NCBI GenBank assembly: GCA_029582155.1 | Contig: CM055895.1 | Coordinates: 13,894,787-13,958,786, forward strand | Reading direction: 5' to 3' | Source: Panopea generosa | Taxonomy: Eukaryota; Mollusca; Bivalvia; Adapedonta; Hiatellidae | Length of the DNA: 64,000 nt | Shown here: positions 1,712 through 63,362 of the stretch, in pieces | Numbering within the stretch: position 1 is the stretch's first letter | Layout: each line of letters starts with the position of its first letter | Notes under the pieces: generated by a model | Databases searched by the model: none | Seen by the model: the letters and a program-made list of their open reading frames with translations, nothing else | Told to the model about the DNA's origin: nothing | Position numbers and translations under genes: made by a program

Positions 1712-2013
1712 TGATTAAATTGACTGAATATTTAGCGTCATTTTTATGACAACGAGGGCTAACAGACGATCAGTTAACCTAACCACTGTTTCCTGGGATC
1801 CTGAAAGGTTAACCAGTTCTCGATCACACCCCATCTCCGCAAGTAACTGATAACTTCCCCACTTGAATCAGTGGTGAGAGACGAATGATTATGAGACACA
1901 ATGTCGTATATCAATCATCACAGAGACTGTTGCCGGGCGAGGGTGGGGTGTCGAAATCACGACACCTGGATTGATAGTCAGACGCGTAACCGACTGAGCT
2001 AATTGGGCCCGGC
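1712..2013 (-). mobile_element. tRNA-derived SINE, family 1
   Basis: Read on the minus strand it starts GCCGGGCCCAATTAGCTCAG (polymerase III A-box region TAGCTCAGTCGG), has a decayed B-box and then a body shared with the copies at 2830 and 15321, including ATTGATATACGACATTGTGT and GTTAACTGATCGTCTGTTAG. It ends in the family tail AAATATTCARTCAA. The decayed B-box suggests an old copy. Confidence 0.85.
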
Positions 2014-2059
2014 TTCAATTAGGAACAAAGTTAAATTGACGGCAGTGGAAGTGAAGTCA

Positions 2060-2550
2060 GTAAAACACAAATATGATTGACCGCATTCTACTGCAGCGTT
2101 TGTTCATTAATGTCTTTAGGATTAATTATAAATGGATATATTTGTATAGTGTAATAAACACAACGTGCCTTTGTTTTGAGGGGAAATGGTGTGCTCGAGT
2201 ACTGGGATGGGGTGTGTTCGAGTACTGGTTAACCTTTCAGGATCCCAGGAAACAGTGGTTACATTGTATATATATGCGACCGTATACATGTAGCGATGAG
2301 TGTTTGGTGCAAAGAGGGTTGGGGATATTGTTTAGCTGTTTAGTATTGCACTATAAGCATGTGGTTAGTGGTTACACTATTACTTTCCTCACTGCGATAT
2401 AACACATGCTCGCATCCAGTCTCACATTACTTCCATTTATCTGTAGCACCATCTTGTGTGTTTAAGTACTAATTAATTAAATCCGACTACAACGCATTAA
2501 GTAGTGTGATTTTTTCAATTCTGTTAATGTTTTTAGTCATAATAACAATA
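2060..2550 (-). mobile_element. solo relative of the 7.6-13.7 kb foldback unit
   Basis: Shares three blocks with the large palindrome, in the order expected for the reverse complement of its left half. They are CGCATTCTACTGCAG near 2082 (spacer), TTACTTTCCTCACTGCGATA near 2380 (a single 75-bp satellite monomer) and TTAATTAAATCCGACTACAA near 2470 (arm just outside the array). Only one monomer is present here, against about 13 per arm there. A fragment of SINE family 1 (CTCGAGTACTGG to CAGTGGTTAC) sits inside at about 2190-2262. Confidence 0.7.
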
Positions 2551-2829
2551 CTGTTGTTTTATTGCTAACTATCAGTAGGAATGAATTACAGCTGGATTTG
2601 ATTTCTTTTTAATATGCTTTTAACATGAAATGTACTTACACGTATTATATGAATAAACCCACTTAGCTGTTTGCCTTTACGATGATACGACTAGTGGTAC
2701 GACATAACTGGTTTTATTTTATGTCTCATACTCAAACGAACGCGTACATTTGCACGTCGTAACACGTTAATTTCATTAAGTGTTTTGATATTAAACTTAA
2801 GTTATAACTTACAGTGTTTTTTATATCAA

Positions 2830-3106
2830 GCCGGCTCAGTCGGTTATGCGTCTGACTATCAATCCAGGGGGTCGAATCTCCGGCCGGCAACAGTCTCCGT
2901 GATAACTGATATACGACATTGTGTCTCATTATCATACGTCTCTCACCGCTGATTCAAGTGAAGAAGTAATCAATTACTTGCGGAGATGGGGTGTGTTCGA
3001 GTACTGGTTAACCTTTCAGGATCCCAAGAAACAGTAGTTAGGTAAACTGATCGTCTGTTAGCCCTCGACGGCATAAAAATTACGCAAAATATTCAATCAA
3101 TCAATT
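2830..3106 (+). mobile_element. tRNA-derived SINE, family 1
   Basis: Same body as the copies at 1712 and 15321, plus orientation. The tRNA head is shortened: about 8 bases are missing after GCCGG, so the A-box reads GGCTCAGTCGG without its usual lead-in. The tail is ATTCAATCAATCAATT. The copy is probably defective for transcription. Confidence 0.88.
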
Positions 3107-4242
3107 CTTATATTGAAGGCTTAATAAAGAACACTGCTAGATAAATCACATGTTTACGCTAACATTGAATTCACAAATATGTTCACTCGTAATATAAAGT
3201 GAAAGTCAGTTTCTATATCTTGTGGATTATAAAATGTACTGACACTATCTTTAATTTCTTGCAATTCTATTTGATTATGAGTTAATGTGTCGATAGCTGA
3301 AATTTTGGTCAAAATGTTCTCATCTTTTGTTAGCAGATTCCATATATCCAGCACAGTTTTGAAATATTTATACATAGCCAAAACTCGGTTATTGTTTGGC
3401 ATTTCTGGATACAATAATCGGTTACTATTAACAAGAACACGTTTTAAAGGAAACACGACAATTTCGATAATTATTCACTTACAAATATTTCTGAATTTTA
3501 TAAATCTACATTACGATTGCAGATATGAAGTAAGAATACCTCAATATGTCGAGAGACACTAAATTTTACCGATATGAAAAAGTCCAAAAATATACGAGGT
3601 GTGTTAAAAAATACGTGGACTTTTTAAATAATTTCTAAACTTGCAGGTTATTTTTTATAAAATTTAATATACATAAGAACTGTTACGTCTACGCATAACT
3701 TATGTGACGGTACTAGTTAAAAAAGTGTTTAATAATTTTCTTAATCTGGATTTCGTACATTAATACTTGTATGACATGTCAAACGTTGCACTATTTTTCT
3801 TTTTTACATTTGTATTCAATTTACATATATTTCTATTGTATTTTGTTACATTTCTATTATATATTTGCTAATTTGTATTTAGTAAATCCTGATTTACATT
3901 GCATATTATTTCATTTCTATTCTATATTTAGGTATCAATATTTTTTATATGGTTACGCATATACCGTCACAGGTGTAAATGATAAGTGAACACGAGCATG
4001 ACAAATATCAACATTGCCGAGTGTCCCTTTTAAGTGTTGCTATGGTGATCATTTCAAACATAATGTATATACAATTGTATTCCACACGTCTATACCACGC
4101 AATGTCTAGTGACACTCAGCATTGTTTATAAATTCATAAAGAATCAACGCATTTAGATTCAAACCGGCGGAGCTGAATTTCAGTCCGATGCAAGGTATTG
4201 TTTGATAAGCTATTATCTCATTTGATCTTAGGTGTGTGATCC
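3107..4242. other. AT-rich interval without a recognised gene
   Basis: A minus-strand open stretch of 100 codons at 3154-3456 has no recognisable domain. At about 3596 the sequence CGAGGTGTGTTAAAAAATACGTGG resembles a mariner-type terminal repeat, but no partner end is visible. Nothing else is supported. Confidence 0.4.
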
Positions 4243-7430: not shown

Positions 7431-7469
7431 TTATTACATTTGAAAATTGTGTTGTCATATTATGTATGT

Positions 7470-7612
7470 ACGGTCAAACCTGTGTTGGTGGTCACCTCTA
7501 TTAATCAGCCACTTGTCTCAAGCTGTCATATGATATATTTCCCATTTCTACGCTTTCAGAGCAAATGCACCTGTATTAAGCAACAACCTGTCTTAAAAGG
7601 CCACTTTTTCGT
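7470..7612 (+). mobile_element. fragment of a TA-flanked MITE (CAGTCAAACC family)
   Basis: Begins TA-CGGTCAAACCTGTGTTGGTGG and contains the sub-terminal repeat CCTGTCTTAAAAGGCCAC. The right end is lost where the palindrome begins. The complete reference copy is at 36880-37040. Confidence 0.65.
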
Positions 7613-7784
7613 TTAACCCTTTATTCCATATGGACACATTTGAACACCTGACGAGCAATCAGAACAGATTCTGCACTGTTTTCTGCTCTATCAGATTAAA
7701 TAGGTAAAATATATCTATTCATGGAAATTGGCTATTTTCAGTTTGGAAGAGTCCATTTAAAATGCATATGGAGTAAAGAATTAA
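7613..7784. mobile_element. TTAA-flanked MITE (CCTTTACTCCATA family), left copy
   Basis: Termini TTAACCCTTTATTCCATATG and CATATGGAGTAAAGAATTAA are inverted repeats, with TTAA at both edges. The core includes GAGCAATCAGAACAGATTCTGC. A relative lies at 58068-58299. TTAA duplication is the habit of piggyBac-like elements, so it is probably a piggyBac-type MITE. Confidence 0.7.
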
Positions 7785-9391
7785 TAGAGAATGTCATGAT
7801 CGCGCGTAAATTGGATGAGGAAGAGAAAAACATTATTGGAAATGCATGAAAGCTTCTCAACAGCTACATATGTAAAATACAACGTAATACCATACAAAAC
7901 CTTCAGCATTATATCATAACATCATATCATAACATGTCAGAGTGGAGTAAAGTATTACTTCATACCAATATGTTTCAGGTTAAATATTAATACCATGTAA
8001 TGTTACATGCTCAACTCATGGCATGTGTCATACTTAATGTCATGCGATTATGTCGTGTTCCATAATGCTTTTTCTTGTTTTATTTTGTGTTTATTTCCTT
8101 TTTCTTCTCTCTTCGTATAATATTTTAGAAATCCTTGTAACAAAGGGAAATAAAGAGTTTAAATAAACCTGATGAAGTTTGGACTAGCAAACACTAACAT
8201 AGTATTCTATTTAAAATGTCTTTATTTTCGTGTTTGAACTATTTTTTTTAAACATCAACAATTGAGTTAATTCAGTGAATCAAATACATGTCTATACATA
8301 TGTGGTACTAAATGCGCCTGAATATAGTTCCAAATTTGATTGATGAATTTAAAACAAAACGAATGTAGTGTGTATGTAAACTGTCAATCGAAGCTGTAGA
8401 TATTTTTCTTCGGAAAAAAACATGGCAAATAAGGTAAGGTGGTATAATTTAATTTTAGAAAAATTTCGATGAAATAAATCAGTTATTTGGCTTATGTGAC
8501 AATATGTGAGGTAAGTCCAATAATAGGGGACGAGGGGATAATAACAAACCAAATAACAAAAAGTTGTTAAAAGTTAGAATAACAACATATAATGCAGGTG
8601 TGTATGTTGAACAAGGTACATGTGCGTGTAGATATCACATGTATACTTGCATCTGTTGATACGTTAAATAATAAAATATTGTAGCAGTTAAGAAACATTT
8701 ATATAATAGTTTGCTGTGAAGGGAGAGGGTACTGGACGTGTAATGTGAAAACATTTTTTGAATAACTTTGGTTTAAATTATATATTTGAAATTATTCACA
8801 TAGCAAAAATTGATATGGACACACGAGAATGTCGAAATGTCCGACTCTTGCTAATGCATCTAATCGATCTTTACATCCATGGACATATAAATATTTGATT
8901 ATTTTAAATGTTTTCACATTACGAGTCAAATACATTTGTAAATCGGTTGGGCATTATTTTTGTTGAAAATGCATGAAATCATTTTTTTTTAATATAATTC
9001 CGTTAATTGCTTTAAGCGTATTGACAATAGCATATTTACTGGTAACTGACTCTAGCAATGAACGGCAGCTGTATTTAAATTCTTTGATTAAAGGAAGTAA
9101 CGGAATTAAAAGAAATCACACTACGCAGTACATTTAGAAATCGATGGACGGGAGAGGAAGTATGATTTAGTCTCATTTGTTCCAGCCTAATATAAAAACC
9201 CTTTTTCAAGATATTTTGCAAATGGACAGGTGGGTGGGGTTACGGGGTCTGAGAGAGAAATATTGGAATACATATTTTCAAATTGTCTCCTGCAATCTTC
9301 AAACTTTCTGATGTTACAGCTTTTTACATTATTCAATGCGTTGTGATCGGATTTAATTAATTAAAGTTATAAGACGGTTTCGTAGACAAAA

Positions 9392-10362
9392 TGAGTGTGA
9401 TATATGTATGTATGTGATTATGGATGTGAGTGTGTGATATCGCAGTGAGGAAAGTAATACACTACCAATGAGTGCGATATATGTTTATGTGATTATGGAT
9501 GTGAGTGTGTGATATCGCAGTGAGGAAACTAATACACGACCAATAAGTGCGATATGTATTTATGTGATTATGGATGTGAGTGTGTGATATCGCAGTGAGG
9601 AAAGTTATACACTATCAATGAGTGTAATATATGTGTTTATGTGATTATGGATGTGAGTCTGTGATATCGCAGTGAGGAAAGTAATACACGACCAATAAGT
9701 GTGATATATGTGCTTATGTGATTATGGAAGTGAATTGTGATATCCCAGTGAGGAAAGTAATACACGACCAATAAGTGTGATATATTTGTTTATGTGATTA
9801 TGGATGTGAGTCTGTGATATCGCAGCGAGGAAAGTAATACACGGCCAATAAGTGTGATATATGTGTTTATTTGATTATGGATGTGAGTGTGTGATATCGC
9901 AGTGAGGAAAGTAATACACTACCAATGGGTGTGATATGTATATATGTGATTATGGATGTGAGTGTGTGATATCGCAGTGAGGAAAGTAATACACGACAAA
10001 TAAGTGTGATATATGTATTTATGTGATTATGGATGTGAGTGTGTGATATCGCAGTGAGGAAAGTAATACACGACCAATAAGTGTGATATATGTGTTTATG
10101 TGATTATGGATGTGAGTGTGTGATATCGCAGTAAGGAAAGTAATACACGACCAATAAGTGTGATATATGTGTTTATGGATGTGAGTGTGTGATATCGCAG
10201 TGAGGAAAGTAATACACGACCAATAAGTCTGATATATGTATTTATGTGATTATGAATGTGAGTGTGTGATATCGCAGAGAGGAAAGTAATACACGACCAA
10301 TAAGTGTGATATATGTATTTATGTGATTATGGATGTGAGTGTGTAAGTAATACACGAATAAT
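9392..10362 (+). repeat. 75-bp minisatellite, left-arm array (about 13 copies)
   Basis: The marker GATATCGCAGTGAGGAAAG recurs at 9436, 9511, 9586 and onward with about 75-bp spacing. Variation is mostly point changes (CTACCAATGAG or CGACCAATAAG). It is mirrored by the array at 10942-11952. Confidence 0.95.
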
Positions 10363-10941
10363 AAATGTAACTACATACTTATAATGCAAACAGCTGAACA
10401 ATATCTTATTACACGAATATCAGTACCCCTGATTATTTATTTTCAGATATTTGCTCTGCGTCCCTTGCCACCCCTCACACTCCATGCGGCTCTACTGTCA
10501 CTGAACACTCAGATTCTCGCGCCCTCAGTCGTCTGTGCACCGCAATCTCATCACTGCATACGGTCACATATATTATACCGCTTCCTCTTAAAACAAAGAC
10601 TCATCCTGTCTTTAACATTATCCAAACAAAGACATTAATAATCAATTTTAATGACATTTCTGAACAAAGACTGCAGTAGAATGCGATCAATTATTAGTCG
10701 GAGCCGACTCTATTTGGATTTCGGAGGTATTCACTGGAGTTATGTAATATAGCGAACAGTAATTATTTCAATGGGTGAATAATGTATTGTTAGTATGATT
10801 AACATACGATTTTTATATGCTGATAATTATAAGAGATTATATATAAGTGAACAAAAACATGCTTTGTTATAATAGTTTGCTTGCAGAGGCGTAGCTTCTT
10901 TAAGGCCAAGAAGACCTGGGCCTTCACATTTTTTTGAAAAA
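10363..10941. other. spacer of the foldback unit
   Basis: About 580 bp of unique-looking DNA between the arms, with no convincing coding region. It holds GACTGCAGTAGAATGCG (shared inverted with 2082) and, near 10885, CAGAGGCGTAGCTTCTTTAAGG, which resembles the end of the element at 40312-40755. Confidence 0.6.
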
Positions 10942-11952
10942 TCACACTCACATCCATAATCACATATATACATATATCTCACTTATTGGTCGTGTATTAC
11001 TTTCCTCACTGCGATATCAAACACTCACTTCCATAATCACATAAATACATATATCACACTCATTGGTCGTGTATTACTTTCCTCACTGCAATACATATAT
11101 CGCACTCACTGGTAGTGTATTACTTTCCTCGCTGCGATATCACACACTCACATCCATAATCACAGAATACATATATCGCACTCATTGGTATTGTATTACT
11201 TTCCTCACTGCGATATCACACACTCACATCCATAATCACATAAATACATATATCGCACTCATTGGTCGTGTATTACTTTCCTCATTGCGATATCACACAC
11301 TCACTTCCATAATCACATAAATACATATATCACACTCATTGGTCGTGTATTACTTTCCTCACTGCAATATCACACACTCACTTCTATAATCACATAAATA
11401 CATATATCACACTCATTGGTAGTGTATTACTTTCCTCACTGCGATATCACACACTCACATCCATAATCACATAAATACATATATCACACTCATTGGTCGT
11501 GTATTACTTTCCTCACTGCGATATTACACACTCACTTCCATAATCACATAAATACATATATCACACTTATTGGTCGTGTATTACTTTCCTCACTGCGATA
11601 TCACACACTCACTTCCATAATCACATAAATACATATATCACACTCATTGATCGTGTATTACTTTCCTTACTGCGATATCACACACTCACATCCATAATCA
11701 CAGAATACATATATCACACTTATTGGTCGTGTATTACTTTCCTCACTACGATATCACACACTCACACCCATAATCACATAAATACATATCGCACTTATTG
11801 GTCGTGTATTACTTTCCTCACTGCGATATCACACACTCACATCCATAATCACATAAACATATATATCACACTTATTGGTCGTGTATTACTTTCCTCACTG
11901 CGATATCACACACTCACATCCATAATCACATAAATACATATATCACACTCAT
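10942..11952 (-). repeat. 75-bp minisatellite, right-arm array (about 13-14 copies)
   Basis: Reverse complement of the left-arm array: CTTTCCTCACTGCGATATC recurs at ~75-bp intervals. The order of variant monomers is not an obvious mirror of the left arm, which suggests the arrays have evolved separately since the inverted duplication. Confidence 0.95.
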
Positions 11953-13535
11953 TTTGTCTATGAAACCGTCTTATAGCTTTAATTAATTAAATCCGATCAC
12001 AACGCATTAAATAATGTAAAAATCTGTAACATCAGAAAGTTTGAAGATTGCAGGAGACAATTTGAAAATATGTATTCCAATATTTCTCTCCCAGACCCAG
12101 TAACCCCACCCTACCGTCCATTTGCAAAATATCTTGGAAAAGGGTTTTTATATTAGGCTGCAACAAACGATACTAAAACATACTTCTTCTCCCGTCCATC
12201 AATTTCTAAATGTACTGCGTAGTGTGATTTCTTTTAATTCCATTTCTTCCTTTAATGAAAGAAATTAAATACAGCTGCCGTTCATTGCTAGAGTCAGTTA
12301 CCAGTCAACATGCTATTGTCAATACGCTTAAAGAAATTAACGGAATTATAAAAAAAAAATATGTTTTCATGCATTTTCAACAAAACTAATGCTCAACCGA
12401 TTTACAAATGTATTTGACTCGTTATGTGAAAACATTTAAAATATTCAAACGGTTATATGTCCATAGATGTAAAGATCGATTGGATGCGTCAACAAGATTC
12501 AGATTAATTTCGACATTCTCGTGTTTCCATATAAATTTTTGCTATTTGAATAATTTCAAACATATAATGAAAACCAAAGTATTTTAAAAAATGTTTTCAC
12601 ATTACACGTCCAGTACCCTCTCCCTTCACAGCAAACTATTATAAAATGTTACTAACTGCTACAATATTTTATTATTTAACGTATCAATATATGCAAGTAT
12701 ACATTTGATATCTACACACACATGTTCCTGCATTACATGTTGTTATTCTAACTTTTAACAACTTTTTGTTATTTGGTTTGTTACTAACCCATCGTCCCTT
12801 ATTATTGGACTTACCTCACATATTGTCACATAAGCCAAATAACTGATTTATTTCATCGAAATTTTTCTAAAAATAAATTATACCACTTTCTTTACCTTAT
12901 TTGGCATGTTTTCTTTCCCGAAGAGAAATATCTACAGCATCGATTAACAGCTAACATACACACTACATTTGTTTAATTTTAAATCCATCAATCAAATTTG
13001 GAACTATTTTCAGGCGCATTTAGTACCGCATATGTACAGACATTTATTAGATTCACTGACTTAACTCAATTGTTGATGTTTAAACACGAAAATAAAGACA
13101 TTTTAAATAGAATACTATGTTAGTGTTTGATAGTCCAAATTTCATCAGGTTTATTTAAACTCTTTATTTCCCTTTGTTACAAGGATTTCTAAAATATTAT
13201 ACGATGAGAGAAGAAAAAGGAAATAAACGCAAAATAAAACAAGAAAATGCATTATGGAACACGACATAATCGCACGACATTTGAATATGACACATGTCAT
13301 GAGTTGAGCATGCAACATTACATGGTATTAATATTAAACCTGAAACATATTGATATGAAGTAATACATTATTCAACTCTGACATGTTATGTTATGATTCT
13401 GCAGGTCTTATATGGTATTACGTTGTATTTTACATAGTTAGCTGTTGAGAAGCTTCCATGCATTTCCAATAATGTTTTTTTCTCTTCCTCATCCGATAAA
13501 GTTTAGACTATTACGCGCGATCATGGCATTCTCTA

Positions 13536-13708
13536 TTAACTCTTTACTTCATATGCATTTTAACTGGACTCTTCCAAACTCAAAAGCCACACATAGTCAA
13601 TTTCCATGAATAGATACATTTTACCTATTTAATCTGATAGAGCAGAAAACAGTGCAGAATCTGTTCTGATTGCTCGTCATGTTTACATTATTTATTAAGG
13701 GTTGTTAA
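13536..13708. mobile_element. TTAA-flanked MITE, right copy (worn outer end)
   Basis: Mirror of 7613-7784: starts TTAACTCTTTACTTCATATGC, contains CAGAATCTGTTCTGATTGC, and ends in a degraded TTAAGGGTTGTTAA. It marks the right limit of the palindrome. Confidence 0.6.
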
Positions 13709-13965
13709 TGTTAGTGGGAGTGGCTAGTTATGGTGGTGGTGATAGTGGTTATGGTTAGTGATGAAAGTGGTATTGGGTATTGGTTGATGGTTATTAGTTG
13801 CTGTGGTGGTGGTTGGTTGGTTGTATTAAGTGTTGTTAATGGTAATGGGAGTGGCTAGTTATGGTAGTGGTAATAATGGTTGTGGTTAGTGATGTTGGTG
13901 GCAGTGGGAAGTGATTAATGGTCGTTAGTTGTGGTGGTGGTGGTGGTGGTGGTGGTTAAAGTGGA
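13709..13965. repeat. TGG-rich minisatellite
   Basis: Two copies of a ~125-bp unit containing GGGAGTGGCTAGTTATGGT, ending in a (GGT)n run at 13932-13957. The unit is the reverse complement of the ACC-rich family at 440-930. Both arrays lie close to foldback-unit sequence. Confidence 0.8.
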
Positions 13966-14982: not shown

Positions 14983-15320
14983 ACGCATGATATAATTAGT
15001 GTGGGTCATTTTTTGGCAATTTTAAAATTTTGAAAAATCCTGATTTACTTCTTTTAAATGTATGTAAACGGTATTTTATTTCATTATATAGATATGCATA
15101 ATATTTAAATGGAATTGAAAAAAAAAAATGTTTGTTAAGGTTGACATGGATTGCATACACATACGATATCATTATTTTTGTTTAAATCCTTCGAAAGTTT
15201 TCGGAAGTACTTCTGATACTTTGAATATTCTGTTTTGTGGTTCAGAAATATCCATATAAAGACAACTCTGCATGGTTATAGTATTTATAACAAATAAATA
15301 CATGTATTCCATTGAAGTGA

Positions 15321-15650
15321 GCCGGGCCCGATAAGCTCAGTCGGTTGCGCGTCTGATTATCAATCCTGGGGTCGTGAGTTCGAATCCCCCGCCCGGCAAC
15401 AGTCTCCGTGATGATTGATATACGACATTGTGTCTCATTATCATTCGTCTCTTACCACAGATTCAAGTGGGAAAGTTATCAGTTACTTGCGGCGACGGGG
15501 TTTGCTCGAGTACTGGTTAATCCCAGGAAACAGTGGTTAGGTTAACTGATCGTCTGTTAGCCTCCGATGGCATAAAACTGACGCTAAATATTCAATCAAT
15601 CAATCTGATGTAAAGTAGAAGTCTGTCATCTCTTCAATCAATCAATCAAA
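15321..15650 (+). mobile_element. tRNA-derived SINE, family 1, with target duplications
   Basis: The best copy of the family. The head GCCGGGC pairs with GCCCGGC, the A-box region is AAGCTCAGTCGG and the B-box GAGTTCGAATCCC. The body matches the copies at 1712 and 2830. The 3' end has two (CAAT)n tracts (near 15592 and 15634). Perfect 12-bp direct repeats CCATTGAAGTGA flank it at 15309-15320 and 15651-15662, so 15321-15650 is the exact insert. The body is 10 bases shorter than at 2830 (CCTTTCAGGA missing). Confidence 0.93.
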
Positions 15651-21289: not shown

Positions 21290-23850
21290 CCATATCCTAT
21301 GCGATAATAAAGACCGAATTTTCCAGTCTGGTACTATCTCTATGGATGTTAGCGATCATTTTATGAAGTTTTGCTCAAGGAAGGTACCGAAAGGTTATTT
21401 TAATTCACATAAAATTGTTAAAATAAGGTCAATGAAAAATATACTAAACAAGATTTCATTCATAATCTCACGAGTGCTGACTGGAGGACATGTTTTAACT
21501 TGACATGTGTAAACGATGCTTGGTCATGTTTTCGTTATATTTTTATGAATGTATTAAACAATATAGCTCCTATTAAAGAGGTCAGATTAAAGCAGCGCAC
21601 AGAACCGTGGATGACTTCTGAAATTCTCGAATTAATTAAAGCAAGAGACAATGCCTTATAAAATTTTAAAAAAACATAAATCTACTGATTATTATAAGCA
21701 ATTTTGTAGCTTTGGAAACAAGGTTCAATATTTAATAAAATCTACAAAATCTAACTATTTCTCGGATAAATGGAAGAACATAAGTATGACGTGAAAGGTC
21801 TATGGCAGCAGTTGAAAAAGCTGGGTTACAAATATAAGACAAACAAAAGTTCGAATATTGTTTTAAATATTGATAATGAGGTTTGTCATGATCCTTTGAC
21901 AATCGCGAATCATTTTAATGATTTTTGTACTACAGTCGCGGCAAATCTTGTTGATAAGCTGCCGAACCATATACATATTTTTACTACATATCTTCACAAA
22001 TTTTTAAGAATTTTTATAACTCGAAGAAGTCTACATACACACTTTTTAAAAAAATCATGTCACTGAGGATTTTGTTTTCAAGGAATTAAATAAGCTAAAT
22101 GCTGCTAAAAGCAGTGGACGACTAGATGGTATTCCAACTAAATCTGTCAGAGACAGTGCGAATTTTCTAAAAACACCTGTTACTTATGTCTATTTACTCA
22201 GGCATTGTTCCTAATTAAATGAAAACTGCAAGAGTCAGCCCGATTTACAAAAGGTCAAGTCCTTTGGAAGTTGGTAATTATAGGCCAGTAAGCATACTTA
22301 ATGCTATATCAAAAGTTTTAAAGCGTTCTGTATATAACCAATTTGCGGATTGTTTAGATAAAAATTCTCTTTTGTATGAGTTTCAGTCTGGTTTTAGGAG
22401 TAAATACTCCACTGATACATGTCTTATTCACTTTTGTTATTTTATTGAACATAACAATGCAAATAGTCTTTATACTGGAATGGTCTTACTCGATCTACAT
22501 AAGGCGTTTGAAACCGTTGACCACGTTATTCTATGTAATTAGCTCTCTGAAATGGGAGTCGCGTCGATAAATTGGTTCAAATATTATCTCACCGAAAGAT
22601 CACAGTTAGTGAAGATAAACAAAGTTTCATCAAAATCTACCCAAGTTACTTGCGGCATACCACAGGGAAGCATCCTTGGCCCTCTTTTATTTCTATGTTA
22701 TGTCAATGATATGCCAATGTGCATCGACTCCGATTGTAAATTATTATTATATGCAGACGACAGTGTAATATTAATCGCTGACAAAGACACTTATGTTATT
22801 ACAGTTAGGCTTAGTCGTATCATGGATAATTATTTTACATGGCTAGTTGACTATTTACTGTCCCTTCATCTAGGCAAAACCGAGTGTATGTTATTTGGCT
22901 CTTCAAGAAGACTTCAAAAAGTTCAGTCATTTACGGTTACATTCAACTGTCATGAAATTCCGTCCCAGGAAAAAGGTCAAATATTTAGGATTAACTATTG
23001 ACAAGTTACTAAACGGTGTGGCGATAGTTGACTCGATTGTTAAAAATGTTAATTCGCGGACTGCATTTTTATATCGAAACTGTCGTTATTTTAACCTTAA
23101 AACTAAGAGAACTTTAATAAGTACCATAGTACGATGTCATTTTCAATAGTCTTGCTTGTCTTGGTATGCCAGTTTTACTAAAACGTTAAAACACAAACTA
23201 AAAGTCATTCAAAATAAAGTTGTACCATTCTTATTTAACTTATCACCAAGGTCTAGAATAACCTGCGCTATGTTAGAAACAGTTAATGTATTGAGGGTTG
23301 AGGATAGAGTAAAACAACTAAGACTTAATCACGTTTTTTATATTTTCCATGGCACCGCGCGAAAATATCTTTATGATTACTTCCATAGGGTGTCTTCTGG
23401 TCATAACCGCGCAAGGTTTATTGAAAGTAATTTTATAATTCTGTATGCTAAGAGTTTCGATTCGGGCACCTTTTATTACAATGCAATTGCTGACTAAAAT
23501 TATTTACCTAACGATTTGAAGAAATTAACCAATAAGCAAACTTTTAAACGTGAAGTTAAAAAACATTTATGTAGCTCCTCGCAGGCTAGAGGAAATGTTG
23601 AATATTTAATTTTTAAGTACATGTCGAAAATATTTCTTGTATTGTGAACCACTTATATGTATTATTCAGTTATTCGGGGTAGAAGATAATTCAATTTTTT
23701 TTGTATTGTTACATTTTATCAAATTTATATCAAATGTCTACATTCTTACGATTTCATGTATATCATATTTTTTTTTAAAAATTTAAAAAATTACAATTTT
23801 AAGGGAAGGGACCCCGTTGGAAATAAGCGCGTTTGTTGCTTTAATGGGTT
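21290..23850 (+). mobile_element. CR1/Jockey-like LINE, 5'-truncated, decayed
   Basis: Motifs run in order. VSDHFMKFCSRKVPKGYF near 21345 is the end of the endonuclease with its SDH box. A linker with LNIDNEVCHDPLTIANHFND is near 21860, then VSPIYKRSSPLEVGNYRPVS near 22240, YEFQSGFRSKYSTDTCL near 22375, LLDLHKAFETVDH near 22485 (catalytic Asp), CGIPQGSILGPLLF near 22655, LLLYADDSVIL near 22745 (intact catalytic Asp pair) and LSLHLGKTECMLFGS near 22860. The 3' UTR carries GGACCCCGTTGGAAATAAGCG near 23810. Open segments 21770-22066, 22219-22542, 22552-23001, 22895-23149 and 23156-23497 show at least four breaks. Truncation begins within the endonuclease, as expected for target-primed insertion. 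Confidence 0.92.
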
Positions 23851-25585: not shown

Positions 25586-25898
25586 TGTCACTTTCACGTC
25601 ACGTTCTCTGAAGTGCATGACCCCCAGTCTCGGACTGAATTCATTTGCATTTCCGCAGATTTACCATTAGCGCAAATTGAGCCATTATCAGTGCTCCCAA
25701 GGTTTTCCGAACTACGATCAATGTAAGATATGTACATGCATTTCAATGAAAAACAGTTAAAGAGAATTTTGGTTTTCGGGTTTTCAAACAGAAAAACAAC
25801 AACTGAGGTCCGTGGATAAATCTCTAAATTTGATCGATTTGATATCAAAGCGATGTGCATGATTATGGGCTGATATCAAAGAGTGCAAAATTATTATT
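25586..25898. other. interval without a recognised gene
   Basis: Short opposing open frames only; nothing recognised. Confidence 0.35.
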
Positions 25899-26209
25899 TA
25901 TAGCGAGATTGCCATTATATAGAGTGTATCTTTCCATATACAGAGTAATTTCATCAATATTTAGAGCAAAATCGCCATTATAAAGAGTGTATCTGTCCTT
26001 ATATAAAGTACTTTCATCATTATTTAGAGCGAGAACGTCATTTTATAGAGTGTATATGTCTATATATAGAGTACTTTCATCAATATTTAGGGCTAGATCG
26101 CCATTATATAGAGTACTTCTGTCCTTATATAGAGTACTTTCGTCATTATTTAGAACGAGAACGTCATTATATAGAGTGTATCTGTCCATATATAGAGTAC
26201 TTTCATCAT
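25899..26209. repeat. 63-bp minisatellite, left part (about 5 copies)
   Basis: The unit TATATAGAGTGTATCTGTCC then a TTATATAGAGTACTTTCATC block and an ATTTAGAGCGAGAACGTCAT block. It stops abruptly at TTTCATCAT, where a LINE sequence begins, and resumes at 29061. Confidence 0.93.
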
Positions 26210-27465: not shown

Positions 27466-29060
27466 TTGGTAGATAGAGCAAATAATCAACACACAAGTAA
27501 TACTAGTAGAAGTCAAACAAATGGAACAAAAATTAGTACCACTAAACCAAAGCAAACTAAACCCGAGTGTTTTGGCTTAACAAAAAAGGGTCTAAAAATT
27601 ACAAATATCAATATAGTACAACCTCTTGCAGATAAACCAAAATTTGAAGATCTTAAACTTTTAATACATAGTAATAATACTGTTAACATTTATGGTATTT
27701 GTGAAACTTGTCTTCAGAATGAGGATGACAGCAAATTAAACATTAATGGTTATAAATTTGAAAGAAGAGATACACCTTGAAAAGTTAGGGGTAGGGGTAT
27801 TCTAGCCTATATTAATGATAATTTATCCTACAGACGAAGATAAGATCTTGAACTTGGACATTTAGAAAGCATTTGGCTTGAAATAAAATTACCGAAATCT
27901 AGATCACTTCTGATCTGTTTTTTTTATATCGGCCTCCCAGTTCACTCATACATTGGGTTGATTACTTTGAAGAAGAGATACAAAAGCTTTAGGTGTCAAG
28001 ATGATATGGAAATAATATCAGAGACATCAATTATGATTACATGAAAGCTCCACCAAAAAATGGTTGGATTGTATAGAAACTTATGTTTTTACCAGTTCTA
28101 AAACATCCCACAAGGGTAAGAGAACATTAATCTACATTAATAGACCACATTTACTCAAACAAACTAGAAAAATATATGTGAAACAAATGTCCCAGTCTAC
28201 AGTGCTAGTGATCACTATCCAGGCTGTGCAACAAGACAAGCACCATCAATCAAATCAGGCAACAAACATACAGATATTAAATACAGAGACTACAAAAAAA
28301 TTGAAGAAAGAAATTTCAAAACCATTTTATTTGACTTTGGCCTTGATAAATAGAAAACATGACAGATTCAAACCTAGCCTTTAATTGCTGGTATAGCATA
28401 ATTATAAATGCACTAGACAAACATGCTCCTTTAAAAACTAGAATAATAAAAAGTGAAATATTTCCAAACTGGTTAGTTTATACTAATTTATTTTTAGCTC
28501 GATTGCGACGAAAGCTCAGAGCTTATATGAACCGCTTTCGAGTCCGCTTCCTGGGTAGAACCAGTACTGAGTGTTGTTTTATGAGAGGCATCGGGTCGAG
28601 CTGGGGATCGAACCCGCAACCTCTGGCGTGAGCAGCCAACACTCTATCCATTAGACTACCGCCTGGTTAAATCCAGAAATAAAAGAAGAAATAAAAGAGA
28701 TGTCTTCCATAAAATGAAAGATTTTGTCCAGTATAAATTTTGGAAAAATAAAACCAATATTTGGATTGAAAAAGCTAAAAGAGAATATTACATAAATGTT
28801 ATAAAAGAAAATAAATCCTCAGGAACAATGTGGAAATATATTAATGAACTGAAAAAAGGAACATCTAAACAAAAATATATAAACAAAATAAAAAATATAA
28901 ATGGATTTGTCACATCTGAAGAACATATTGCAAATGAATTAAACAGCGTTTTCACAAATATTTCTTTTAAAATTCCGAAGTGCAATAAAGTCTTTGAGCT
29001 TAATAAACTTAAAGAATTTGTTAAAAATAAACAAAAAATAAATAAAATGTTCAATAAGAA
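27466..29060 (+). pseudogene. LINE ORF2, endonuclease part (broken, no RT core)
   Basis: LKITNINIVQPLADKPKFED opens the APE-type endonuclease. It is followed by VNIYGICETCLQNEDDSKLN (catalytic Glu in ICET), GYKFERRDTP, and a SASDHYPG box near 28190 (SDH catalytic motif). FPNWL near 28463 and NPEIKEEIKEM near 28672 are separated by a SINE. FWKNKTNIWIEKAKREYYIN, GTMWKYINELKKGTS and EEHIANELNSVFTNI belong to the linker ahead of the reverse transcriptase. Multiple stops and shifts lie between them. ORF2 supplies nicking and reverse transcription in LINEs; this copy cannot. Confidence 0.8.
28476..28662 (-). mobile_element. tRNA-derived SINE, family 3, inserted in LINE ORF2
   Basis: On the minus strand the head reads GCGGTAGTCTAATGGATAG (A-box) and GTTGCGGGTTCGATCCCC (B-box). 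A 7-bp duplication CTGGTTA flanks it at 28469-28475 and 28663-28669. Removing the insert and one duplication makes the LINE frame read FPNWLNPEIKEE without a break, so the insertion point is exact. The insert is younger than this LINE copy. Confidence 0.92.
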
Positions 29061-30420
29061 GCAAGAACGTCATTATATAGAGTGTATCTGTACATATATA
29101 GAGTTCTTTCATCAATATTTAGAGTGAAACGTCATTATATAAAGTGTATCTATCCTTATGAAGAGTACTTTTATCAATATTTAGAGCGAGATCGTCAGTA
29201 TATAGAGTGTATCTGTCCTTATATAGAGTACTTTCATCATTATTTTGAGCGAGAATGTCATTATATAAAGTGTATCAGTCCTTATATAGAGTACTTTCAT
29301 TTTTATTTAGATCGAGAATGCCATTATACAGAGTGTATCTGTCAATATATAGAATACTTTCATCACTATTTAGAGCGAGAACACTCATTAAATAAAGTGT
29401 ATCAGTCCTTATATAGAGTACTTTTATCATTATTTAGAGCGAGAATGTCATTATATAGAGTGTATCTGTCCATATATAGAGTACTTTCATCACTTTTTAA
29501 AGCGAAACACCATATATAAAGTGTATGTGTCCATATATAAAGTACTTTCATCATTATTTAGAACAATGTCGTCATGATATAAAGAGTATCTGTCCTTTTA
29601 TAGAGTCATTTCATCAATATTTAGAGCCAGATCGCCATTATATAGAATTCATCTGTCCATATATAGAGTACTTTCATCACTATTTAGAGCGAAAACACCA
29701 TTTTATAAAGTGTATCTGTCCTTATATAGAGTAATTTCATCATTATTTCGAGCGAGATCGCCATTATATAGAGTGTATTATATTTTGTCCATATATAGAA
29801 TACTATCATCATTATTTAGAACGAGAACTTCATTCTGTAGAGTGTATCTGTCTTTATATAGAATACTTTCATCATTATTTAGAGCGAGAATGTCATTATA
29901 CCGTATATGTCCATATTTAGAGTACTTTCATCATTATTTAGAGCGAAACGTCATTATGTAGAGTGTATATGTGCATTTATAGAGCAATTTCATCATTGTT
30001 TAGAGCGAGATTGCCATTATATAGAGTTTGTCTGTCCATATATATAGTGTATTTATCATTATTTAGAGCCATTATTATGAGTATATCTGTCCTTATATAG
30101 TGTACTTTCATCATTATTTAGAGCGAAACGTCATTATATAGAGTGTATATGTGCATTTATAGAGCAATTTCATCATTGTTTAGAGCGAGATTGTCATTAA
30201 ATAAAGTTTATCTGTCCATATATATAGTGTATTTATCATTACTTAGGGCGAGATCGCCATTATTATGAGTATATCTGTCCTTACATAGTGTACTTTCATC
30301 ATTATTTAGAGCGAGAACGTCATTATATAGAGTGTTATTGTCCATATATGGAGTACTTTCATTATTATTTGAAACGAGATCGTCATTGTATAGTGTGTAT
30401 CTGTCCTTATATTGAGTACT
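29061..30420. repeat. 63-bp minisatellite, right part (about 21 copies)
   Basis: Same unit as 25899-26209. It resumes in the same phase about 8 bp further along the unit. The period is a multiple of three, so repetitive frames such as YIECICPYIEYFHHYLERE arise without being genes. The right third carries ~125-bp duplicated variants (TATAGAGCAATTTCATCATT near 29977 and 30158). Confidence 0.93.
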
Positions 30421-32884: not shown

Positions 32885-33160
32885 GCTTGAATGGGGTTTA
32901 ACGTCATTTTCATCAAATTTCATGTAATATATGGCAGTTGTCCGACTGAGTAGAACCACCGTCCTTCCGCAAGTAACTGAGAGACATCAGAATGAATCTG
33001 AGAAGATCCACCGTCCTTTCCGCAAAGTAACTGGCAAACTTTCTCACATAAAGTTTTGGACCGAGCGGGATTCGAACCTACGACCTTAGCGGTGAGAGGT
33101 AAGTGGTCATTTGACGACAGCGTCTTGGACCCGGTGACCACGGCGATTGAAATCCCATGT
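32885..33160 (-). mobile_element. tRNA-derived SINE, family 4 (Leu/Ser-type head), minus copy
   Basis: On the minus strand the B-box is GGTTCGAATCCC, followed by CTTTATGTGAGAAAGTTTGC, CGGAAAGGACGGTGGATCTT and a tail AATGACGTTAAACCCCATTC. The middle (ACTTGCGGAAAGGACGGTGG) is duplicated in tandem. It faces the plus copy at 33258-33505. Confidence 0.85.
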
Positions 33161-33257
33161 ATACGTATATATGCAAAATATATTACACATTAACTATACA
33201 TAAAATAAAAAATATCTAAAAGTGCACACTTTATCCACTGAGTATATTCAAGTGACA

Positions 33258-33505
33258 GCTGGTTTCTCCGTGGCCGAGTGGTCTAAAGCACCGTTTCAAG
33301 ATCACTTACTTCTCACCGCTTAGGTCGTAGGTTCGAGTTCCGCTCGCTCCAAAGACTTTATGTGAGAAAGTTTGCCAGTTACTTGCGGAAAGGACGGTGA
33401 GTCTTCTCAGATGCATTCTGATGTCTTCCACCGTCAATGAAAGGACATGTCATATATAACACGAAAATGTGTTGGGGAAATGACGTTAGCCCTCATTCTA
33501 TCGGC
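33258..33505 (+). mobile_element. tRNA-derived SINE, family 4, plus copy
   Basis: Head TCTCCGTGGCCGAGTGGTCT (A-box TGGCCGAGTGG, as in class II tRNAs), B-box TAGGTTCGAGTTCC, then the same body as the minus copy and tail AATGACGTTAGCCCTCATTC. Separated from its inverted partner by about 100 bp. Confidence 0.88.
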
Positions 33506-45506: not shown

Positions 45507-46352
45507 TTACTTTAACATACTGTGAAGTATCCCAATATTGAACAATAATACATCTTCAATCTGTTCAATGTCAGATAAATATTCATTAAGCCCGGAAAGC
45601 AGTGCATAAATCTGATCTTTAGGCGTCTTTTTAATAAATGAATTAAAGACCTGAAGACCACAAGTCGTTATAACTGCGTCCCAAAGCTTATTTCTTTCGA
45701 CAGTGTTTGCAATACAAAAATGAACAATATGTAGTACTAAATTATCTACAAGCGTATTACATTTGTTACATAGCTGTACAGCTGTAAACGATTGCAGTTT
45801 ACTTAGTAGTGACACTGCTGTAAAACATTGTGCTTTTACATACTGATTTTTCCTACTTAATTGCCATAGGAAGCAAGGCCTATTTATGCTAAACATATTC
45901 ATGACATATGATGGACCCATCTTGTCACCTAACCTCATTAACATTGTATTTGAGTAATGTATTAGCACTTTTTGTCTAAGAATATATTTCCATGCATACT
46001 TGGATGGAAATATTGCTGTTTTAGAATAATTAACCAAATAATTATATAGATCATACTTCGTTAATATTCAATAGATGTCAGGAATAAAACCTAATGTTTG
46101 TTTATCATCACTAAGATATTTTAACAGACGATTAACAAATAATTGCTTAGCAATATACTTATTCGGGAGTCTGCATAATTGACCAAAGAATTGTAGCTTC
46201 CTGTAGTCGATTTCCGTTTCAAGTGAAGTTACACCAATAGAGCTTAAAGCAAAATCCGTATTTACATATTGTGGGATATTTTGGATAAATTTTATACAGA
46301 ATCTATGTCCTCGTTCTAGTTGTATAATATTTGATTTGGTTAAGAATTCCAT
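45507..46352 (-). pseudogene. LINE C-terminal region, separated by a shift and a stop
   Basis: Open pieces 46068-46352 (LTKSNIIQLERGHRFCIKFI onward, IDYRKLQFFGQLCRLPNKYI) and 45507-46037 (TAIFPSKYAWKYILRQKVLI and QLCNKCNTLVDNLVLHIVHF) follow the 873-codon frame. The TGA at about 46066 falls between FIPDIY and ILTKYD. The CNKC and IVHFC part is the C-terminal Cys/His block common in this LINE group. Two single lesions account for all breaks. Confidence 0.85.
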
Positions 46353-48961: not shown

Positions 48962-49031
48962 GATTGCAGATTAAAAAAATATATAATAGCATATTATAAA
49001 CTAAAGACGCTTGAGTAAATAATACGTAATT

Positions 49032-58067: not shown

Positions 58068-58299
58068 TTAAGTTCTTTACTTCATACAGACGCATTCGGA
58101 CACCTTTAATATTGAAAGCATTAATTCACCACATATCAGCAATGGGTGAATTATGTTTATATTAACTAACAGAGTGGAAAACAGTGCAGGAAGTGTGCAG
58201 ATTGCTCGTTACGAGCAATCTGAACTCTTCCTGCACTGTTTTCAAAGGCCTTCTGTGATTGGTGGGGGGAAAACGCGTATCTATGGAGTAAAGGTTTAA
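58068..58299. mobile_element. TTAA-flanked MITE (CCTTTACTCCATA family)
   Basis: TTAAGTTCTTTACTTCATAC and the complement of TATGGAGTAAAGGTTTAA form the ends, each with TTAA. Inside at 58184-58248 is a near-perfect palindrome, AAACAGTGCAGGAAGTGTGC then AGATTGCTCGT with its complement. Same family as both ends of the foldback unit. Confidence 0.75.
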
Positions 58300-60984: not shown

Positions 60985-61172
60985 TAAATAGTGGAGCCTG
61001 TATCTATATATTATATGTATTGGAGCCTGTATCTATATATTATAGGTATTGGGGCATGTATCTATATATTATAGGTATTGGGGCATGTATCTATATATTA
61101 TAGGTATTGGGACCTGTATCTATATATTATAGGTATTGGGGCTTGTAAATATATATAATAGGTATTGGGGCC
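60985..61172. repeat. 29-30-bp minisatellite, first segment
   Basis: TGTATCTATATATTATAGGT then ATTGGGGCA repeats about six times. It is interrupted at 61173. Confidence 0.92.
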
Positions 61173-61849
61173 TACCGTAAATCTCCAATTATAAACCGCA
61201 CTCAAGTATAATCCGCAGGTGATTTTGAAGCTGAAACTTATTGAAAAAAGCTAGTATCCATAATCCGCAGGCATGAATCACATGAATGAGCTGTTAACTA
61301 CATCCGCCATTTTTTAGATGAATTTTGATTGGCTTATTATGGAGTAACGAAATCTAGACAGGTGTACTGCATAACTTTGTAAAAACGTAGGTAAAACATT
61401 TTGATATGATGTATAGTGAGTTGGAGACAATAAAACTTGCGAGGTTCAAATGGTGTTACCGAAATTATTTTATGTTTGTGTATTTGGGTTAAATTTGAAT
61501 TAATCTAATACCACCATGCACAAAATTTTAATTGATAAATTACCACCATGCACTAAATAAAAAAAAATAGGTTAAAATCCCCTTTCTTCTTTTCTCTTAT
61601 TGTAACACTTTGCAGAATAACTAGTCAGGGTGTTTGCCTTCTTTCTTTGAAGAATGCCGACACAACCCTTTTGATGTAATGTCGATGAGCAAATGATTAG
61701 TCACAGTTTTCCAAAGGTCGAGAATTAAATAAAGGGGCATTATAGAATAACAAACGAAAAGAAAAAATAAAATTTATAAAAGGTCAGTGTTTGTTTAAGG
61801 CGGAAAAAGTGTCTTGCGCATTGACACCACAGACTGACGTTGCGAAGGA
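61173..61849. mobile_element. 677-bp insertion within the 29-bp array
   Basis: Starts TACCGTAAATCTCCAATTAT with AACCGCACTCAAGTATAATC, compatible with an element end also hinted at 50765. The right junction is at about 61849, where TATCTATATATTATAGG resumes. No terminal inverted repeats are recognised. Confidence 0.5.
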
Positions 61850-61916
61850 TATCTATATATTATAGGTACCGGGGCCTGTATCTGTATATTATAGGAACTT
61901 GGGACATGTATCTCTA
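61850..61916. repeat. 29-30-bp minisatellite, second segment
   Basis: Two units (TATCTATATATTATAGGTAC and TGTATCTGTATATTATAGG) between two insertions. Confidence 0.85.
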
Positions 61917-63165: not shown

Positions 63166-63362
63166 TCTATATATTATAGGTATTTAGGGACTGAATCTAT
63201 ATATTATAGGTAGTGGGGCATGTATCTATATATCATAGGTATTGGGGCAACGGGCATGTTTCTATTTATTATAGGTATTGGGGCATGTATCTATATATTG
63301 TAGGTATTGGGGCATGTATCTATATATTATGGGTATTTAGGCCTGTATCTATATATTATGTT
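63166..63362. repeat. 29-30-bp minisatellite, third segment
   Basis: Six to seven units of TCTATATATTATAGGTATTG then GGGCATGTA; the units TGTTTCTATTTATTATAGG and TATTTAGGCC are diverged. Confidence 0.92.

What the first reader, a model, noticed from the sequence alone, without database searches (positions are those of the whole stretch)
7613..13708. A 6.1-kb palindrome whose two arms each carry a ~1-kb, 75-bp satellite array
Directly visible: 1.75 kb of unique arm plus about 13 satellite units on each side in mirror orientation, with a 580-bp spacer and TTAA-bounded ends. FB and Galileo foldback elements of Drosophila have long inverted repeats built of tandem repeats. I know of no described molluscan family with this exact layout, but I cannot search. 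By eye the arms differ by small indels and about 10 percent, so the palindrome is not an assembly mirror of one read.
Basis: partly seen in the sequence, partly recalled or inferred. Interest (0 to 1): 0.78.

Follow-up and report, generated by a model that had tools for sequence, protein, structure and literature searches.

The report
Old inverted duplication of satellite-bearing repeats
A real 6-kb DNA palindrome, each half holding a short satellite array, which looks more like one old mirror-image duplication of repeat-derived DNA than a jumping element with its own matching ends.

Summary
The inverted match 7646-10343 / 10943-13682 has 88.8% identity over 2,788 columns. Outside the arrays the arms (7649-9389, 11954-13679) are 93.2% identical without gaps: 116 substitutions, 11 gaps. 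Each arm holds about 12-13 units of 77 bp (not 75) around a ~0.6-kb spacer. The difference pattern and the unlike flanks argue against an assembly artefact.

The foldback-transposon reading is weakened. No target duplication longer than 6 bp was found, and TTAA is common. The arm homology starts inside a 172-bp TTAA-bounded MITE (7613-7784), with a relative at 58068-58299. The left MITE has both ends. In the right arm the outer end is lost or so altered that only weak, inconsistent likeness remains. A diverged relative of the inner arm, the spacer and ONE satellite unit lies at 4.1-2.1 kb, so the DNA is older repeat material whose array probably grew from one unit.

Best explanation: one old inverted duplication (0.55). 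A decayed foldback element (0.2) or a MITE-ended compound element (0.12) remains possible. No genome is held, so uniqueness is untested.

The parts
7613..7784 (.). MITE 'X-L': 172-bp TTAA-to-TTAA element with inverted ends. The arm boundary (7649) lies inside it.
   Evidence: Own ends match each other, score 88 vs 99th percentile 61 of random window stretches; outer end matches both ends of the copy at 58 kb, scores 89 and 82 vs 59; against TTAA-anchored stretches only 1 and 2 of 1,378 score as high; TTAA at 7613 and 7781
7649..9389 (+). Left arm outside the array; read as the parental copy (inference)
   Evidence: 93.2% ungapped identity to 13679-11954 reversed
9390..10344 (+). Left 77-bp array, about 12.6 units, GC skew +0.54
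   Evidence: TRF; unit alignment; skew
10345..10942 (+). Spacer. About 10345-10405 and 10577-10694 are like 2370-2324 and 2190-2073, in the same order after the unit
   Evidence: (75%, E 3e-19 for 10577-10694; weak, E 9e-4, for the stretch with 10321-10405), alignment, nhmmer E 1.3e-13
10943..11953 (-). Right 77-bp array, mirror image, about 13 units (one cut to 47 bp)
   Evidence: TRF
11954..13679 (-). Right arm outside the array; read as the derived inverted copy (inference)
13536..13679 (+). MITE 'X-R' at the outer end of the right arm: one TTAA end kept (13536), the other lost or strongly altered beyond 13679
   Evidence: outer stretch 13680-13708 tested: weak, inconsistent likeness
13693..13956 (+). 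GTGG-type minisatellite that begins about 13 bp outside the right arm; its next unit repeats the stretch TATTAAG.GTTGTTAATG
   Evidence: TRF; alignment
7468..7611 (+). Left flank: copy of another dispersed repeat (other copies near 37.0, 39.4-39.6 and 55.3 kb); no likeness found beyond the right arm
   Evidence: flank tests
58068..58299 (+). MITE 'X58', relative of X-L, with a 67-bp hairpin (62 of 67 positions self-complementary) centred at 58210
2073..2608 (-). Locus B: diverged relative of inner arm + ONE 77-bp-like unit (2377-2427) + spacer; the stretch 2490-2608 lies in flipped orientation
3968..4081 (-). Probable further piece of locus B (like arm about 8.76-8.87 kb)
   Evidence: nhmmer 22.6 bits vs best null 5.6 bits in 5 resampled windows

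Best explanation
A one-off, old inverted duplication. Shown: two diverged mirror copies of about 2.7 kb; a MITE with both ends on the left that crosses the arm boundary; the same MITE on the right without a clear outer end; the same array start in both arms; inner arm, unit and spacer also present at locus B, in one order apart from a flipped piece. Inferred: the left arm, with its two-ended MITE and the spacer that goes with it, is the parental copy. A copy of the stretch from within the MITE to inside the 77-bp array was joined in reverse orientation between the spacer and the GTGG minisatellite, by end joining or template switching. Both join points lie in DNA that could break or stall replication: a point matching a hairpin apex, and a strongly strand-asymmetric tandem array. 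The arms then drifted apart by about 7% and their arrays turned over separately. The array itself probably grew from a single unit, as seen at locus B. No function is implied.
For: The arm boundary is internal to a TTAA MITE that has both ends on the left and no clear outer end on the right. The MITE parts of the arms differ no more than the rest (6 of 136 against 110 of 1,558 ungapped positions), so the MITE was copied with the arm. No target duplication: the longest exact direct match near the boundaries is 6 bp, at unequal distances. The outer flanks are not alike beyond chance at 100, 500 and 2000 bp (p 0.57, 0.69, 0.38) and marginal at 40 bp (p 0.08). Unit 2 of both arms shares a 2-bp deletion and each is the other's closest match across arms (0.03), and position-matched units are closer than permuted ones (p=0.018 at offset 0, the best of 7 offsets tried; 24 of 25 units used), so an array already existed when the arm was copied. 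Substitutions are not significantly uneven along the arms (p=0.33, 17 bins, last 73 columns dropped). Locus B carries arm, unit and spacer without a second arm.
Against: The stretch 13680-13708 resembles the left MITE's outer end at p 0.01-0.02 (20 of 1,378 TTAA-anchored stretches), so the right MITE may once have been whole and the duplicated unit may have run from TTAA to TTAA; my first test (p=0.18) had left out three bases. Locus B is cut off by a SINE-like repeat beyond the spacer, so it cannot show that a second arm was never there. The unit-level collinearity is weak after allowing for 7 offsets. Both arms lack the second hairpin stem of X58 from the same point, which a simple duplication does not by itself explain. 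No genome-wide search was possible.
Confidence: 0.55

Rival explanations
1. A decayed, non-autonomous foldback transposon (Tetris/Galileo-like plan): long inverted repeats with a flanking domain and a tandem-repeat domain around a short middle, moved by a transposase encoded elsewhere.
For: The plan (flanking domain, tandem array, non-coding middle) is that of Tetris (PMC4079207, section read). Parts recur in the window: outer 150 bp at 58 kb, inner arm and spacer at 2-4 kb. In Tetris too the ends match a MITE.
Against: No target duplication seen, against 8-9 bp in the three complete Tetris copies. The shared MITE has its own two inverted ends, so the arm boundary falls in its middle. No second two-arm copy found in the window. 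No Pfam match above cut-off in the 10 of 51 palindrome-region ORFs scanned.
Confidence: 0.2
2. A compound element: two inverted TTAA MITEs (X-L and X-R) at the ends mobilised everything between them as one unit, from TTAA at 7613 to TTAA at 13708.
For: MITE copies lie in mirror orientation at both outer ends. The stretch 13680-13708 resembles the left MITE end with TTAA in register (p 0.01-0.02). I raised this rival from 0.08 to 0.12, and lowered the best explanation from 0.6 to 0.55, because of that re-test.
Against: The likeness does not hold against four other MITE ends (20 of 1,378 for the left end, but 106, 375, 1,005 and 1,226 of 1,378 for the others), and most of the stretch belongs to the minisatellite, whose next unit repeats it. 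If homologous it is far more diverged than the adjoining arm. The MITE parts differ no more between arms than the rest, so they did not insert separately.
Confidence: 0.12
3. Assembly artefact: a folded-back read, or two alleles joined head to head.
For: Long palindromes and satellite arrays are classic misassembly sites (recalled); no reads were available.
Against: Differences are mostly substitutions (116 against 11 gaps), unlike raw long-read error (recalled). The outer flanks are not alike beyond chance from 100 bp upwards, which an allelic mis-join would not give.
Confidence: 0.07
4. A hairpin-RNA locus: transcription through the palindrome gives long double-stranded RNA that is cut into small RNAs against the satellite or repeat family.
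For: Arms at 93% identity outside the arrays could pair; relatives that could be targets exist.
Against: No transcription data. Substitutions are not significantly uneven along the arms, so no conserved paired core shows.
Confidence: 0.05

Closest known systems
Tetris, foldback transposon of Drosophila virilis (PMC4079207; passages and one section read)
   Same: Long inverted repeats made of an outer flanking domain plus a tandem-repeat domain, around a non-coding middle; ends related to a MITE
   Different: Complete Tetris copies have 8-9 bp target duplications, and three such copies exist; here no target duplication was seen, one two-arm copy in 64 kb, 77-bp not ~220-bp units, and the MITE is a separate element with both its own ends
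Galileo, P-superfamily element of Drosophila (PMC3573991; abstract and outline seen)
   Same: Long internally repetitive inverted repeats
   Different: Galileo has a transposase-coding sequence, and 170 copies were annotated in D. mojavensis; neither was found or testable here
Cg_HINE non-autonomous Helentrons of Crassostrea gigas (PMC7492417; abstract and first part of Results read)
   Same: Satellite-like tandem array carried inside dispersed repeats, with a microsatellite-like stretch and variable unit number
   Different: Those carry one, exceptionally two, arrays of mostly 140-180 bp units between short flanks, not a 6-kb palindrome with two mirrored arrays; their sub-terminal repeats were not looked for here
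TTAA-type MITEs (piggyBac-like by their ends; this label is recalled)
   Same: X-L and X58 are short, TTAA-bounded, with inverted ends and, in X58, a central hairpin
   Different: They form only the outermost part of the palindrome, not the palindrome itself; no transposase was linked to them

Membership tests
Foldback transposons (FB/Galileo/Tetris plan) | Long inverted repeats containing tandem repeats around a middle domain | tested here: met
Foldback transposons (FB/Galileo/Tetris plan) | Target-site duplication directly at the outer ends of the inverted repeats | tested here: not met
   longest exact direct match near the boundaries 6 bp, at unequal distances from them
Foldback transposons (FB/Galileo/Tetris plan) | Outer ends of the arms are the element's own termini | tested here: not met
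   boundary 7649 lies inside a TTAA-to-TTAA MITE at 7613-7784. Caveat: weak likeness beyond the right boundary leaves a TTAA-to-TTAA unit possible
Foldback transposons (FB/Galileo/Tetris plan) | Several two-arm copies in the genome | not testable with these tools
   no genome held; none other seen in the 64-kb window
Foldback transposons (FB/Galileo/Tetris plan) | Transposase in some copies | tested here: inconclusive
   no match above cut-off in 10 of 51 ORFs (three weak ones below it, none a transposase); non-autonomous copies lack it anyway
TTAA MITE (X-L and X58 only) | TTAA at both ends plus inverted terminal repeats | tested here: met
   the end pattern (written from these copies) has 5 matches in the window, against 1 in 100 resampled windows
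TTAA MITE (X-L and X58 only) | Ends shared with an autonomous piggyBac-type element | not testable with these tools
   No host genome held
Non-autonomous Helentron (HINE) | 5' and 3' sub-terminal inverted repeats and 3' palindrome flanking the array | not tested
   Considered only as a model for locus B; not searched for

The most novel reading that the evidence does not exclude
The stretch shared with locus B is an undescribed dispersed element with one 77-bp unit, in which array growth and hairpin-guided inverted duplication together build foldback-like elements afresh, bounded by TTAA MITEs that might even move them, so that other such palindromes exist in this genome at various stages.
Probability: 0.15. 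Interest if true: 0.6.

Novelty: new member of a known kind. Interest (0 to 1): 0.32.

Why it matters
It is a readable case of how an inverted duplication with one join inside a hairpin-type MITE and the other inside a tandem array can produce something that looks like a foldback transposon. The single-unit relative at 2.4 kb gives a before-state for the satellite array. If other two-arm copies exist it would be a foldback family outside the groups where such elements are best known; if not, it is ordinary genome turnover.

Tried and rejected
Whole-genome copy count: no genome is held for the window. Exact-pattern scans for the satellite unit in genome contigs and viral contigs gave 0 loci; a scan for the inner-arm motif in genome contigs gave 0. 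These collections are prokaryotic and viral, so the zeros say little. A degenerate MITE motif in viral contigs gave one contig, L001; only 41 bp are alike at 85%, and I dropped it as a chance match to the pattern. Rfam (gathering threshold) and ARAGORN (bacterial code) found nothing in the window.

TTAA as a target duplication of the whole palindrome: not supported by frequency, but not excluded. Extension of arm homology beyond the boundaries: first test negative (p=0.18), but that test left out bases 13680-13682; with them the right flank matches the left MITE end at p 0.01-0.02, and inconsistently against other MITE ends. I count this as inconclusive. Gene-conversion tracts between the arms: no significant unevenness. 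Repeat A at 1719-2014, 2834-3105 and 15320-15604 was first suspected to be inverted termini of locus B; its alignment looks like a tRNA-derived SINE (box-like stretches read by eye), so I dropped that. The GTGG minisatellites beside both the palindrome (13693) and locus B (452-1712) suggested a shared 3' end, but simple-sequence likeness (69%) is no proof; left as a lead.

Literature: the listings (8 papers; 8; 3; 3), of which I saw titles and starts of abstracts, named no molluscan foldback element with arrays in its arms; two searches found no paper; one search gave no precedent that I used. Passages of PMC12628747, PMC8268682 and PMC5139131 were seen by word search, not the whole papers.
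Full report
OBSERVATION. The palindrome is real. Self-BLAST matches 10943-13682 to 10343-7646 on the opposite strand over 2,788 columns at 88.8%. TRF gives a 77-bp unit in both arrays: 12.6 copies at 9390-10344, and 11.3 copies at 11090-11953 with two further rows inward to 10944. One search, with slightly wider cuts, gave 1,586, 117 and 12 gaps, one of them an end overhang. The clear homology stops at TGACGAGC (7649, and 13679 on the other side); BLAST adds three letters, two of them alike.

NOT A SIMPLE ARTEFACT. The differences are mostly substitutions, whereas raw long reads err mostly by gaps (recalled). The flanks outside the arms are not alike beyond chance at 100, 500 and 2000 bp (p 0.57, 0.69, 0.38) and marginal at 40 bp (p 0.08). 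An allelic mis-join would have like flanks. Reads were not available, so this is an argument, not proof.

THE ENDS. TTAA occurs 690 times in 64 kb; a random point has one within 36 bp on one side in 33% of trials. The longest exact direct match between the two boundary regions is 6 bp, at unequal distances, so no target duplication is visible. The outer 150 bp of the arm has a relative at 58 kb (nhmmer E 2e-8 with the arm profile; E 2.4e-36 with a profile that includes the hit itself). There the sequence is a TTAA-to-TTAA element, 58068-58299, with inverted ends and a 67-bp hairpin, 62 of 67 positions self-complementary. The left arm boundary lies inside a second such element: 7613-7784 starts and ends with TTAA, and its ends match each other (score 88; 99th percentile of random stretches 61). 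Its outer 36 bp match both ends of the 58-kb copy (scores 89 and 82 against 59); among 1,378 TTAA-anchored stretches of the window only 1 and 2 score as high. The end pattern, which I wrote from these copies, has 5 matches in the window: two in each of the two complete copies and one, at 13536, in the right arm; 100 resampled windows gave one match in all.

THE RIGHT END IS UNCLEAR. My first test found no MITE end beyond the right arm (p=0.18), but it left out bases 13680-13682. With them, 13680-13708 resembles the left outer MITE end, TTAA in register, at p 0.01-0.02, or 20 of 1,378 TTAA-anchored stretches. Against the other four MITE ends it is unremarkable: 106, 375, 1,005 and 1,226 of 1,378 stretches score as high. 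Most of the stretch is also the start of the GTGG minisatellite, whose next unit repeats it. So the outer end of the right MITE is either lost or much altered, next to an arm whose MITE part is 95.6% identical (130 of 136). Both arms read GCTCGTCA and then differ from each other, where the 58-kb copy turns back as GCTCGTTACGAGC: both leave the hairpin at its apex and lack the second stem. On the left at least, the arm end is not a transposon end of its own; the TTAA at 7613 belongs to the MITE.

THE INSIDE. A diverged relative of the inner arm, of one 77-bp-like unit and of the spacer lies on the minus strand at locus B: 2378-2507 with 9459-9326 (73%, E 3e-16), 2073-2190 with 10694-10577 (75%, E 3e-19) and, weakly, 2324-2407 with 10405-10321 (E 9e-4). 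3968-4081 resembles the arm near 8.8 kb (22.6 bits; best score in 5 resampled windows 5.6). A stretch at 2490-2608 matches arm 9.0-9.1 kb but flipped (12.1 bits; E 3e-10). About 1.4 kb, including a SINE-like repeat, separates 3968 from 2608, so locus B is not simply collinear. It shows one unit where the palindrome has 12-13. The spacer belongs with the left arm in the same order. A SINE-like repeat at 1719-2014 ends locus B beyond the spacer, so a lost second arm there cannot be excluded.

THE ARRAYS. Within-arm unit divergence is 0.071 in both arms and between-arm 0.075, gaps ignored. The arm alignment runs without a break into the start of both arrays. Unit 2 of each arm shares a 2-bp deletion, and each is the other's closest match across arms (0.03). 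With gaps counted and the 47-bp unit dropped (24 of 25 units used), position-matched units are closer than permuted ones (p=0.018 at offset 0; 7 offsets tried, so only suggestive), and units differ slightly more between than within arms (p=0.03). I read this as an array present before the duplication that turned over separately afterwards. Substitutions along the arms are not significantly uneven (p=0.33 on 17 bins, last 73 columns dropped; p=0.21 on bins), giving no sign of conversion tracts.

MECHANISM. The left arm has the two-ended MITE and the spacer that goes with it, so it is most simply the parent. The right arm is then a reversed copy from within the MITE to a point inside the array, placed between the spacer and a GTGG minisatellite that starts about 13 bp outside it. 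Joins at a hairpin-type sequence and in an array with GC skew of about 0.54 are plausible, and palindrome-associated junctions of a bivalve satellite have been described (13 of 16 break points at the longer palindrome of phBglII400; PMC5139131, passage seen). Stem-loop models for repeat growth from MITEs are also in print (passages of PMC12628747 and PMC8268682). The steps of the event itself are inference. An attractive extension, that one break at the apex both cost the left MITE its second stem and set the end of the right arm, is speculation.

COMPARISON. The plan resembles Tetris of D. virilis: outer domain, tandem domain, non-coding middle, and a MITE with matching ends (PMC4079207). But complete Tetris copies have 8-9 bp target duplications, not seen here, and here the MITE has both its own ends. 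So it looks like a foldback element without passing the end tests; the main test, copy number, could not be run. Transposase: 51 ORFs of at least 45 codons overlap the region; the 10 scanned gave no Pfam match above cut-off, three weak ones below it. Of the window's open frames, 10 stretches were scanned (one search lists 33 frames of at least 100 codons), and three matched: the LINE-type frame at 46340-48970 and two adjoining reverse-transcriptase stretches at 22219-23001. The species was not identified.

VERDICT. A decayed foldback transposon stays at 0.2. The re-test of the right end moved 0.05 from the best explanation, and the MITE-ended compound element rises from 0.08 to 0.12.

Noticed in passing
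1719-2014 (-), 2834-3105 (+), 15320-15604 (+), fragment 2206-2261: A dispersed repeat of about 280 bp that looks like a tRNA-derived SINE (A- and B-box-like stretches read by eye, AATC-rich tail); three copies 82-86% alike plus a fragment. Rfam and ARAGORN did not report it.
   Followed up: partly
32982-33426: A 445-bp inverted pair, 74% alike, whose two halves each hold a tRNA-like stretch (by eye); perhaps two SINEs head to head.
   Followed up: no
46340-48970 (-) and 22219-23001 (+): An 876-aa open frame with endonuclease and reverse transcriptase domains (LINE type), and a second reverse transcriptase split by one stop.
   Followed up: partly
2490-2608 against 9005-9105: The same stretch lies in opposite orientation in locus B and in the palindrome arm, next to short inverted repeats (AATTCCGTTA / TAACGGAATT) in the arm: a small inversion.
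   Followed up: partly
452-1712 and 13693-13956: GTGG/CCAC-type minisatellites lie beside both locus B (beyond a SINE-like repeat) and the right end of the palindrome, on the same side in element orientation; possibly a shared 3' part.
   Followed up: no
25895-26208 and 29060-30420: Two arrays of one 63-bp unit (21-bp subperiod) about 3 kb apart; stretches of them are about 78-86% alike.
   Followed up: no
60992-61173, 61850-61913, 63166-63359: Several short arrays of a 29-bp unit (TCTATATATTATAGGTATTGGGGC...) within 2.5 kb.
   Followed up: no
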